From the NCBI RefSeq assembly GCF_900607225.1, contig NZ_LR027842.1, forward strand, positions 903,802-967,801: 64,000 nucleotides of DNA, given 5' to 3'. The stretch is from [Pseudopropionibacterium] massiliense (lineage in GTDB: Bacteria; Actinomycetota; Actinomycetes; Propionibacteriales; Propionibacteriaceae). Below, in pieces: positions 37,787 to 43,345 of this stretch. Position 1 is the first letter of the stretch. The number at the start of each line of letters is the position of its first letter. The notes beneath the pieces were generated by a model. It did no database searches and was not told where the DNA came from. It saw only the letters and a list, made by a program, of their open reading frames with translations. The translations under genes and the position numbers were made by a program.

Positions 37787-39528
37787 ATGCTGTTGCAGCA
37801 TCAATCAGTCGTCAGAGCGGCTGGGGTGGGCGTCCGGTTGTTGGGTTTCCCGGTGCTCGCGGGCCTGGGAAGTTCCGCTCTGCTCATCTCGGCTGCCTGG
37901 ATCAATGCCGCGCTGTTCAACGAGCTTCTGGGGCAGCGGCGCCCGGACCAGCTCGCGTGGCTGGCCGGGGCCCTCGGAGTCGTCCTGGTGCTGCGTCCCC
38001 TGGCCGAGTTCCTGGGGGAGATCGCCCAGAACCGTTCCGGCCTGGTCGTCAAACGCAACCTGCGGTGCGCACTGCTGGCCAAGTTCGAGGAACTCGGACC
38101 GATGCGTTCCGATGCGGGCTGCAGCGGTGCGCTGCACTCCGTCCTCACCGACGGCATCGAGGCGGTGGAACCCTACTTCGTGAAGTACCTCTCCCAACTG
38201 GTGGTCACGGTGGCCGTCGCCCTGGCCATCACCGTGATGATCGGTGTGCACAGCGCGCTCATCGCGGGCATCCTCCTGGTCTGTGGCATGGCGGTGGTCG
38301 CCATCCCGCGGATCTGGGACAGGGTGCTCGCCGAGCGGGGAAGGGAGCACTGGGACGCCTACGAGAACATGAACTCCGACTTCATCGACGCCATGCTGGG
38401 AATGACCACGCTCAAGTCCTTCGGGGCGGCCGGATACTACGGGCAGCAGCTGGAGACGCAGTCCACGCGGCTGCTGGACTCGACCCTCGGCCAGCTCCGG
38501 CTCTCCCTGGGCGAGACCGGGCTCAGCGGTGCCATGAAGGTGCTGGGACCCGCCGTGGCCCTCGTCCTGGGGATCGGCCAGATCAGAGGGGATCGCTCAC
38601 CCTCGGGTCGCTCTTCCTGGTGATACTCCTGTCCATCGAGTTGTTCCGGCCGTTCACCGCCCTCTCCGGCATCTGGCACGAATCCTTCTACGGAATCTCC
38701 GCAGCCAGCCAGATGAGCGCGCTGTTCCGGCTGGCGCCCGGTAATCCCCGGCCATCCGGGGAGGGATGGGGCAAACCCCCGGCGGGGGACATCGAGTTCG
38801 ACAACGTCGTCTACAGCTACCCGGGAGCCGGGCAACCTGCGCTGGATGGGGCGTCCTTCCGGATTCCCGCCGGCGCCGTGACCGCGATCGTCGGTCTGTC
38901 CGGTTCGGGGAAGTCCACCGCCCTCGGACTGCTGATGGGATTCGATCGACCCGCTGAAGGAAGGATCCGCGTCGGCGGGGTGGACCCCGCCACCATTCCC
39001 GTCGAACGGTTGATCACCCTGGTGCCGCAGGACCCACTCCTGTTCCCGGGAACCGTCCGCGAGATTCTCGCCGAGGCCAATCCCGGGGCCGGCGAGGCGC
39101 AGATGCTGACCACCCTGGGGACAGCACAGGCCCAGGATCTGAGGACATTCGACGCCGGGGAGGAGAACGGCATCCTCGATGTGAGGGTCCTGGAACGGGG
39201 AACGAACCTCTCGGGCGGTCAGAAACAGCGGCTGGCGATTGCCCGGGCGTTGATCAGGGAAACCCCGGTTCTGATCCTGGACGAATCCACCTCGGCCCTG
39301 GACTCCCGCACGGAGCAGCGGTTGCTGGCCGGGATCAGGGAGAGACACCCGGGTCTGACCCTCATCCTCGTCACCCACCGGATCGACGCCGCATCGAGTG
39401 CCGATCACGTCATCGTCATGGAACACGGCCGGGTCGCCTGCCAGGGTTCCCCGGGGGAACTGCTGGCGGAGCCCGGGAGCCCCTGGGCCGGACTCGTCGC
39501 CATGCAAGCCGGACGGGAGGCAGTGTGA
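37787..39528 (+). pseudogene. ABC half-transporter 1 (exporter fold), one apparent -1 frameshift
   Basis: Conceptually about 580 aa: an N-terminal six-helix domain ('LLISAAWINAALFNELLG', 'VVTVAVALAITVMIGVHSALI') and a C-terminal ATPase with Walker A VGLSGSGKSTALG, signature LSGGQKQRLAIA and Walker B VLILDESTSALD. The first frame ends at 38623. The second is needed from about 38591 ('SLTLGSLFLVILL'), and adding one G to the run at 38588-38591 restores IRGGSLTLG. The start is ATG 37787 with GGAAGGGAG. Resembles the IrtA/IrtB or CydD/CydC class. Paired with the next gene by GTGA overlap. Confidence 0.8.
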
Positions 39529-41257
39529 GAACCGCGATCCGTGAAGTACTGCACCTGCTCGGGATGCTGAAAACCTGCCGGGGCCTGTTCGCCGCATCCA
39601 CGGTGGTCACCATGCTGTCGCAGCTGACGTTGGTGTCGGTCAGCATCACATCGGTGTGGATCACCACCACCCTGATCGCCGACCCGGACGCCGGACTGTC
39701 GCTGCTGACCGGGGTGCTGTTCGGGGGCGTCGCCTTCCACGCGTTGAGCCTCCTGCTCGAGGTCTGGTGGTCCCACGAGGTGGCCTACCGGATCCTCCAC
39801 ATCCTCCGGGTCCGGATCTACGCGGCGATCAGGCGCATCGCCCCCCTGGGGTTGCAGGGAAGAAGAACCGGGGACGTGGCGTCCGCGGCCATGGGTGACG
39901 CGGAGACCCTGGAGTGGTTCTACGCGCACACCGCGAGTACTGCCATCTGCGCGGTCATCAGCCCCGCCCTGATGATCGGCATCCTCTGCTGGCTGGTGGG
40001 GCCGATCGGCCTTGTGATGGCGTTCGCGTGCGTGCTGCTGGTCGCCTGCCCGCTGCTGCTGATGGGAGTCCAGACGCGGCAGGGGATCAGGCTCAGGAAG
40101 AGCCTTTCCGACCTGCGCGTCACGGCACTGGACTTCGTGCACGGGCAACGGGAGCTGCGCAGCCTGGGAATGGTGGAACGCCAGGGGTCGGCGATCCTGT
40201 CGGGAACCGATTCGATCCAGTGGATCAAACTCGGGCAGTCACTGAGGCAGTCGGTGGAGAAGGCCTGTGGTGGGATCCTCACCGCCGTCGCGACCCTGGT
40301 CCTCATAGTTGTCCTGACCGGTGGGGTCATCGATGGCAGGATCGCCCCGGACATCCTGCCCGTGGCCATCGTGCTGGCCGGGATGAGCATCGCCCCGGTC
40401 ATCTCCCTGACCGGGATGCTCGCCCGGGTGGGGGAGATCGGCGCCTGTGCCGGGAGAATCCGGGGAATCCTGGAGGTGGAGGACCCGATCCCCGCGACTC
40501 CGGAGACGGGGCTGCGCTCGCGACCCGGCGAGCAGGGAGAGCTCGACCTCGAATCGGTGTCGTTCGCCTACGGCGACGAGGAGGTGCTGAAGGACGTCAC
40601 CCTGTCCGTGGAACCGGGACGCTCGATCAGCCTGGTGGGTCCCTCCGGGGCGGGAAAGACGACCATCGCCAACCTGGTGATGCGATTCCTGGATCCCGGC
40701 GAGGGCGAGGTGCGTTTCAACGGCGAGAACCTGCGGGCCGTCGCCCCCGACGAGCACCGCGAACGACTGGCCCTGGTGCCGCAGGACTGCCACATCTTCG
40801 CCGGAACGGCGGCTCCAACCTGTCCCTGGCCCGGCCGGAGGCATCCGATGCCCAGCTGTGGGAGGCCCTGGAGAGGGCCGGCCTGGCGGAGATGGTGCGC
40901 CGGCTGGGCGGGCTGGAGGCCAGGATCGGCGACCGTGGTGCCAACCTCTCGGGAGGCGAACGTCAACGCCTCGGGATCGCGCGGGCCTTCCTCCGCGATC
41001 CCGAGCTGCTGATCCTGGATGAGCCGCTGGCGAACCTCGACCCGTTCCTGGAGGCCGAGATCTCGGCGAACATGGCCCGGCTCAGGTCGGACAGGACGAC
41101 CGTGGTCATCGCCCACCGGCTCACCTCGATCAGGATGGCGGAGAGGATCATCGTCCTGAACGACGGGCGGATCGAGGCCAGCGGGAACCATGACGAGCTC
41201 CTGGGCAACCCGTTCTACAGGAACCTGCTCGGAACCCAGATCGGGGACGAGACATGA
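39525..41257 (+). pseudogene. ABC half-transporter 2 (exporter fold), one apparent -1 frameshift
   Basis: Conceptually about 577 aa. A six-helix domain precedes an ATPase with Walker A VGPSGAGKTTIAN, then 'ALVPQDCHIFAGTA', where the frame breaks near 40811. The alternative frame continues 'SNLSLARPEASDAQLWEAL', signature LSGGERQRLGIA, Walker B LLILDEPLANLD and the H-loop 'VVIAHRLTS'. Restoring one G at 40811-40812 joins both parts. Gene order and GTGA coupling imply a heterodimer with the preceding half-transporter, as in IrtAB-type siderophore importers that have an exporter fold. Confidence 0.8.
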
Positions 41258-41288
41258 CCGCTCCCGCCTGCACGGGAAAGGGCGACAC

Positions 41289-42322: not shown

Positions 42323-42356
42323 CCATTCCGGAAATGACGAGGACAAGGAGATATCC

Positions 42357-43345
42357 ATGAAACCCACATCCACGCCCGCCAGGCTGGCCGCGCTGGTGCT
42401 GGGGGTCGCGGCCACCGTCACCACGTTCAGCGGCTGCTCCCCGGCGAACACCACCGAGACGACCAGCGGCGAGGCCATGACCATGAGCAACTGCGGCAAG
42501 AACACGACCTTCACCACCCCACCGTCGAAGGTGCTGTCGCTGGGAGTCTCGGGGCTGGCCTATCTCTATGCCGCGGGAGCCAAGGAGAAGATCGTCGCCC
42601 GGGCCAACGAGTACGGGGAACCAGCCGCCTCGTGGATGGGCGGCGGTGCCGACGACATCAGGATCGCAGCCGACTCGGGCATGTCCGTCGAGGGGGTGAT
42701 CGGGCTGCAACCCGACCTGGTCTACGGCGGGGGGTTCGATTCCTCCCAGCTCCCACCCGAACGCCTGATCGAGAAGGGCATTCCGGCGGTCGTCGACCAA
42801 CCCGAATGCCACTACCTCTACTCCGATCAGAAGAGGATGAGTCATTCGACGCGATCCTCACCGAGGTCTCCCGGCTCGGGAAGGTGCTCGGCACCTCCGA
42901 CAAGGCCGAGGCCGAGGTCGCAACCCTGAGGGGGGAGCTCGACAGGCTGGCCAGGGAGAAACCCGGAGCGGGACGGAAAGTGGCCTTCGCATACTACTTC
43001 GGCGAGGAGGAAGGCCTCTTCAGTTACGGGGAGGCGGGCGTGATGGGCGACATGATGAAGTCGCTGGACCTCAGGACGGCGGTGGACCCCAGCTACCACC
43101 CCCACCAGGGTCCGATCGCCCCCGAGGCCTTCGTGAAATCCGACGCCGACCTGATAGTCGTGCTCCTGGGCATGGGGGGAGCGACCAAGGAATCGACCAT
43201 GCAGCGGCTACAGGCGATTCCCGGGTTCCAGGACATGAAAGCGGTCAAGGACGGCAAGATCTTCTACGCCGAGTCCGCCATCGCCTACGCATCCCCGTCG
43301 GCCATCCACGGGGCCATCGAACTGGCCTCCAAGATCAAGCAGTAA
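42357..43345 (+). pseudogene. Iron-siderophore substrate-binding lipoprotein, one apparent -1 frameshift
   Basis: Conceptually about 329 aa. A lipoprotein signal (KPTSTPARLAALVLGVAATV, lipobox ending SGC) follows AAGGAG. The FecB/FhuD-type fold has 'PSKVLSLGVSGLAYLYAAG' and 'EGVIGLQPDLVYGGGF'. The frame breaks after 'YLYSDQKR' near 42835. Adding one G gives 'RDESFDAILTEVSRLGKVLG' and the second lobe to 'AIELASKIKQ'. It would capture the ferric-siderophore on the outer face of the membrane for the FecCD-like permease. Confidence 0.8.

What the first reader, a model, noticed from the sequence alone, without database searches (positions are those of the whole stretch)
37787..43345. Four consecutive transport genes each carry one apparent -1 frameshift in a G/C run
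In half-transporter 1 (run 38588-38591), half-transporter 2 (40811-40812), the FecCD permease (41576-41579) and the binding lipoprotein (about 42835-42836) the family sequence passes from one frame to another. In each case adding a single base to a short G or C run restores it. The downstream parts are otherwise well kept and contain no further stops, and the ATPase gene at 43349-44122 is intact. The events are therefore recent, or not real. All being -1 in homopolymers is what long-read error gives. Yet the rest of the window, including pepA next door, shows none, so uniform error is unlikely. If true, a whole iron-uptake operon has been lost at once.
Basis: partly seen in the sequence, partly recalled or inferred. 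Interest (0 to 1): 0.75.

Follow-up and report, generated by a model that had tools for sequence, protein, structure and literature searches.

The report
Recently broken transporter operon, repeatedly lost
Four neighbouring genes of a bacterial uptake system each seem to have lost one base and stopped working; sister species have lost the same genes in other ways, so this looks like the recent, real decay of a spare nutrient transporter, although misreads in the sequence cannot be ruled out without the raw data.

Summary
The two halves of each of the four genes match consecutive parts of one family, or of one uninterrupted homologue, in frames that differ by one base; the ATPase is whole. The statement that the rest of the window shows no such break does not hold: an NmrA-like gene 2.5 kb upstream has a fifth -1 shift (about 34702) plus an in-frame stop (34978-34980). 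Neither is present in sister genome G003.

I read this as recent decay of a dispensable, accessory transporter. In G003 both half-transporters are whole, but about 2.6 kb with most of FecCD, the binding protein and the ATPase is deleted. At this locus G004 lacks the whole operon and most of the NmrA gene; G062 lacks the operon. All six lesions lie in the 18.7% of window coding sequence missing from G004's matching region. In a sampled third of the genome, frame breaks are scattered.

Against it: all five shifts are -1; Pfam-supported shifts elsewhere mostly (6 of 8) go the other way; protein changes show no excess on this branch. A local assembly error stays open (about 0.25). Programmed frameshifting is unlikely: relatives read through in one frame. 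'Iron uptake' is a family-level guess. Ordinary biology, modest interest.

The parts
37787..39528 (+). half-transporter 1 (ABC_membrane + ABC_tran, nearest CydD-like), in two frames; frame change at about 38588-38592
   Evidence: whole in G003 and in 13 of 13 distant relatives
39525..41257 (+). half-transporter 2 (nearest CydC-like), in two frames; frame change at about 40810-40812
   Evidence: whole in G003 and in 13 of 13 distant relatives
41289..42322 (+). FecCD-family permease, in two frames; frame change at about 41576-41579
   Evidence: whole in 13 of 13 distant relatives; mostly deleted in G003
42357..43345 (+). binding lipoprotein (Peripla_BP_2), in two frames; frame change at about 42835-42848
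   Evidence: whole in the 5 of 13 distant relatives in which both pieces were found in the held DNA; deleted in G003
43349..44122 (+). ABC ATPase, 257 aa, uninterrupted
   Evidence: deleted except the 3' end in G003
34361..35256 (-).
   Evidence: frame open in G003; 34418-35170 absent from the matching region of G004
41456..44031 (.). segment absent from G003 (deletion of about 2.6 kb)
   Evidence: alignment blocks end at 41455 and resume at 44032; 13 bases lie between the blocks in G003
37574..44201 (.). segment absent from the matching region of G004 (whole operon)

Best explanation
The five-gene operon encodes an ABC uptake system of the FecCD / binding protein / ATPase kind together with a pair of half-transporters. 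In this lineage four of its five genes have recently become pseudogenes by four separate one-base losses, and a neighbouring NmrA-like gene is decaying too. The likely mechanism (inferred): selection on this accessory, redundant system was relaxed, and small slippage deletions, of a kind that NucS-type mismatch repair does not correct, were kept. Shown: the frame breaks, the uninterrupted homologues, the losses at this locus in sister genomes, the many other FecCD systems, and that this genome has NucS and no MutS match. Inferred: that the breaks are in the DNA of the cell, their order, and the loss of function.
For: (1) The same operon is damaged or missing in sister genomes by other routes: a deletion of about 2.6 kb in G003; absent from this locus in G004 and G062. 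(2) All six lesions lie in the 18.7% of window coding sequence without a syntenic match in G004: 4e-5 if the six were independent, 0.035 if counted as two units. (3) The NmrA-like neighbour also has an in-frame stop, with the frame open in G003; that is not a one-base loss. (4) Frame breaks elsewhere are sparse: 22 raw calls in 56 stretches, 1.12 Mb (13, 9), of which 7 genes have Pfam support for a split (not all 22 were tested). (5) Redundancy: 22 FecCD matches in the own genome, 21 over the cut-off, two of them the two pieces of this gene. (6) Runs of about 100 N in 6 of the first 36 sampled stretches, against 0 of 24 in G003, suggest a scaffolded draft rather than one unpolished long-read contig (an inference). 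(7) This genome has NucS and no MutS match. NucS does not repair 1-2 base indels in M. smegmatis (PMC11551767, passages); that species gave 207 small indels beside 856 substitutions in mutation accumulation (PMC4938668, passages).
Against: All five frame changes are one base short, whereas 6 of the 8 Pfam-supported shifts in the sample go the other way (one-sided Fisher 0.016), and M. smegmatis indels were mostly insertions (141 of 207; 0.003 for five deletions at that ratio). There is no excess of protein changes on this branch: polarised differences in the two half-transporters are 21 derived here against 27 in G003, and 147 codons at the end of half-transporter 2 show 0 non-synonymous against 16 synonymous differences. 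dN/dS of the three longer pieces, 0.19-0.24, is above the window median of 0.13, but 17 of 55 other segments reach 0.19 or more. No raw reads and no second strain were available.
Confidence: 0.67

Rival explanations
1. Local sequencing or assembly error: a stretch of about 9 kb with poor or uncorrected data, leaving several one-base losses in genes that are whole in the cell.
For: All five are -1 and the reading frames are otherwise well kept; the lesions are confined to 34.7-42.9 kb; the direction differs from most supported shifts elsewhere in this genome. Indel errors that shift frames remain in polished nanopore assemblies (PMC8011154, passages).
Against: No comparable cluster in 1.12 Mb sampled from the same genome (two thirds not looked at); the lesions coincide with units missing in sister genomes; one lesion is an in-frame stop; two sites lie in two-base runs while 28 runs of 5-6 G/C bases lie in the region.
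Confidence: 0.25
2. Programmed -1 frameshifting or another recoding keeps the four proteins whole.
For: All four would need the same -1 direction.
Against: No X_XXY_YYZ heptamer from 45 bases before to 15 after any site; half-transporters 1 and 2 are uninterrupted in 14 of 14 relatives, FecCD in 13 of 13, the binding protein in 5 of 5 testable.
Confidence: 0.02
3. One mutational episode (for example an error-prone polymerase copying a repair tract) made several -1 slips in about 8 kb at once.
For: Five -1 events clustered in one stretch, against scattered supported shifts elsewhere, 6 of 8 of them of the other kind.
Against: No excess of substitutions in the stretch: dS of the half-transporter pieces against G003 (0.10-0.19) lies below the window median of 0.22.
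Confidence: 0.05

Closest known systems
Ordinary pseudogenes by small indel in redundant transporter genes
   Same: frame breaks, otherwise well-kept sequence, sister genomes that lack the locus in part or whole
   Different: four consecutive genes hit once each, all in one direction
FecCD / Peripla_BP_2 / ABC ATPase importers (BtuCDF, FhuBC, HmuUV kind)
   Same: pieces pass Pfam cut-offs PF01032, PF01497, PF00005; FhuB, HmuU and BtuC are among the 8 solved permeases matched
   Different: no listed substrate model passes its cut-off; best is the putative F420-0 set, 191 of 437 bits for the larger permease piece
CydDC, IrtAB and YbtPQ heterodimeric half-transporters
   Same: fold family; solved CydC, IrtA and YbtQ chains match half-transporter 2
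   Different: CydD and CydC cut-offs not reached, also not by the uninterrupted homologues in L042

Membership tests
recent pseudogene operon | reading frame broken relative to uninterrupted homologues | tested here: met
recent pseudogene operon | break present in the organism, not only in the assembly | not testable with these tools
   no raw reads and no second strain at hand
recent pseudogene operon | relaxed selection after inactivation | tested here: inconclusive
   dN/dS 0.19-0.24 against median 0.13, reached by 17 of 55 other segments; no excess of derived changes on this branch
recent pseudogene operon | system dispensable in relatives | tested here: met
   deleted in part in G003, absent from this locus in G004 and G062
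sequencing error | same type of break spread over the genome | tested here: not met
   22 raw calls in 56 stretches, 1.12 Mb, of mixed direction
sequencing error | longest homopolymers hit first | tested here: not met
   sites in runs of 2-4; 28 G/C runs of 5-6 in the region
sequencing error | reads disagree with the assembly at the sites | not testable with these tools
   no reads at hand
programmed -1 frameshifting | slippery heptamer at the site | tested here: not met
programmed -1 frameshifting | break conserved in relatives | tested here: not met
FecCD-type importer | family match of permease, binding protein and ATPase | tested here: met
   pieces searched apart
iron or siderophore uptake | curated substrate model over its cut-off, or an iron-regulator box | tested here: inconclusive
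   no listed model over its cut-off (pieces, lists capped at 25, whole homologues); no DtxR-type box with up to 3 mismatches in the window (consensus recalled)
CydDC | NCBIfam CydD/CydC equivalog cut-off | tested here: not met
   pieces; whole homologues in L042: CydD 324 of 435 bits, CydC 287 of 329

The most novel reading that the evidence does not exclude
The lesions came in one burst: an error-prone repair or copying tract of about 8 kb left a row of -1 slips, a frameshift counterpart of clustered mutation showers, in an actinobacterium that has NucS but no MutS and so may not correct small loops.
Probability: 0.05. Interest if true: 0.6.

Novelty: new member of a known kind. Interest (0 to 1): 0.28.

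Why it matters
It is a small, clean case of one transporter locus in different states in close species: point frameshifts here, a partial deletion that spares the half-transporter pair in G003, no operon at the locus in G004 and G062. The G003 state hints that the half-transporter pair can be kept without the FecCD module. It also warns that annotation of this genome would list several 'partial' transport genes whose status only reads can settle.

Tried and rejected
Programmed frameshifting: rejected. Uniform error: rejected. Iron-regulator box: the full DtxR-type consensus (recalled) gives no hit in the window and two sites in the genome, neither at the operon. A looser half-site pattern hit 37687, but I had shaped it after seeing that sequence, so I give it no weight. 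Small contigs C2-C6: they read all N, so they could not be tested as an alternative copy of the region; I did not pursue them. Binding protein, second piece, against solved structures: no match; the whole homologue in L042 matches 8 binding-protein sequences, among them yclQ and BauB, which does not settle the substrate. Literature: 8 searches; no report of this operon or of its loss seen in the listings. Of the 22 raw frame-change calls outside the window: judged two separate genes after Pfam: L067 17209, L081, L126. Pfam gave no support for a split: L118, L120 (two calls), L122, and L129 16583 (second piece without a family). Not tested by Pfam: L055, L066, L074, L077, L078, L125. Supported: L053, L054 (two calls), L067 13373, L071, L073, L133, L134; of these L053, L071 and the first call in L054 are weaker (two different domains, or repeats). 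A 'shift1' could be one base gained or two lost.

Full report
What is there. The window is bases 903802-967801 of contig 1 of a 3.48 Mb genome of about 66% G+C in the sampled stretches. The genus is probably Arachnia in the wide sense; that name is my inference from size and G+C and comes from no call. The pieces, searched apart, match family profiles in order and nearly without loss. Half-transporters 1 and 2 are uninterrupted in G003 and in 13 of 13 distant relatives, FecCD in 13 of 13, and the binding protein in the 5 relatives in which both pieces were found (8 of the 13 could not be tested for the binding protein). So the broken state is derived.

On the minus strand at 34361-35256 an NmrA-like gene (name) has an in-frame stop (34978-34980) and a -1 frame change near 34702. 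In G003 the frame is open throughout. Between it and the operon lie a TetR-like gene and pepA, both uninterrupted (these two names, and 'arginase-like' below, come from reading the sequence or from the finding, not from a call).

Is it more than chance? In 56 sampled stretches (1.12 Mb, 32% of the genome) the same rule gave 22 raw calls: 13 in the first 36 stretches and 9 in the other 20. After Pfam checks of most of these, 7 genes have support for a split: L054 (two shifts), L067, L073, L133 and L134 more clearly, L053 and L071 more weakly. Three in-frame-stop calls were also seen in the sample, L065, L121 and L129, beside the one in the window; Pfam supports L065 (FTR1) and, weakly, L129, and gives nothing for L121. 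In G003 24 stretches (472 kb) gave 8 raw frame-change calls. No sampled stretch resembles the window, which has five supported shifts in 8.1 kb; a sixth raw call in the window (52350) looks like an ordinary gene junction, with the old frame's stop at the junction.

Relatives. G003 aligns with the operon region except for a gap from 41456 to 44031: most of FecCD, the binding protein and the ATPase are gone, and the half-transporter ORFs are whole (594 and 577 aa). Stretches that hold the remnants of FecCD and of the ATPase end show 87% and 85% identity with small gaps, which may mean that this deletion is older than the breaks here. In G004 pepA is followed directly by the arginase-like gene: the operon and 34418-35170 are absent from the locus; the best match to half-transporter 2 anywhere in G004 has 29% identity. 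In G062 pepA lies next to the match of window 45276, so operon and arginase-like gene are absent from the locus. 18.7% of the window's coding bases have no syntenic match in G004, and all six lesions fall there. If each were independent that is 4e-5; if the operon and the NmrA gene count as two units it is 0.035.

How old. Against G003 the four half-transporter pieces have dN 0.00-0.04 and dS 0.10-0.19; dN/dS is 0.19-0.24 for the three longer pieces and 0 for the last. The median of 55 other segments is 0.13, and 17 of them reach 0.19 or more (one further segment had no synonymous difference, and two FecCD/ATPase rows are matches to paralogues and were set aside). Amino-acid differences polarised by 13 relatives: 21 derived here, 27 in G003, 15 unclear, summed over the four half-transporter pieces; they are uneven, 8 against 1 in the first piece of half-transporter 1 and 4 against 14 in its second. 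With the M. smegmatis ratio of 207 small indels to 856 substitutions (PMC4938668, passages), two indels in the two genes predict about eight substitutions, too few to see. So the data fit very recent loss, and equally no loss at all. This genome has NucS and no MutS match, as expected of the group.

What speaks against real loss. All five shifts go the same way; of the eight Pfam-supported shifts elsewhere six go the other way (0.016), and in M. smegmatis 141 of 207 indels are insertions. That is what a local data problem could give. Reads would decide; none were available. Runs of about 100 N occur in 6 of the first 36 stretches, and one of about 100 and one of 11 bases in one of the later 20, against 0 of 24 in G003. 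They look like scaffold gaps of a draft; it is possible that they are masked stretches instead.

What the system does. Permease and ATPase are of the class that carries siderophores, haem, corrinoids and similar ligands. The best NCBIfam names are the putative F420-0 set, below cut-off. The half-transporters resemble CydD/CydC below cut-off, and half-transporter 2 matches solved CydC, IrtA and YbtQ. In all 13 distant relatives, mostly Actinomycetales by their titles, FecCD lies within the same held locus as the half-transporters, on the other strand; in Gleimia (L042) the whole module is adjacent and divergent. So the two modules are linked beyond this operon. The substrate is unknown; iron-bearing ligands are the best guess.

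Other iron genes. In the sample an FTR1 iron permease has one in-frame stop. A binding-protein ORF at 2315355-2316419 is followed in frame by a piece with a weak match to the end of the same family; its G062 orthologue has an internal stop. Together with 22 FecCD matches in the genome this fits a genus with many, partly spare, uptake systems. I did not test for enrichment.

Verdict. A recent and probably real loss of an accessory transporter operon, at a locus also lost in part or whole in sister species; ordinary in kind.

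Noticed in passing
window 34361-35256, minus strand: NmrA-like gene with an in-frame stop and a -1 frame change, both absent from G003; most of the gene is absent from the matching region of G004.
   Followed up: yes
L045 5022-5036 (G003): Junction of a deletion of about 2.6 kb that removes most of FecCD, the binding protein and the ATPase but leaves both half-transporters whole.
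   Followed up: yes
L065 3997-4815 (G000:C1:203997-204809): FTR1 iron permease with one in-frame stop; no FTR1 match in G003 or G004.
   Followed up: partly
L129 15355-16754: Binding-protein ORF followed in frame by a piece that weakly matches the end of the same family; its G062 orthologue has an internal stop.
   Followed up: partly
L133 4404-5886 and L134 10033-11224: Aldehyde dehydrogenase and YcaO genes each split once, in the other direction from the window cluster.
   Followed up: no
L031-L043: In the 13 distant relatives FecCD lies on the strand opposite to the half-transporter pair, adjacent in some and some 3-4 kb away in others; in Mobiluncus (L043) two methyltransferase genes separate FecCD from the ATPase and binding protein.
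   Followed up: no
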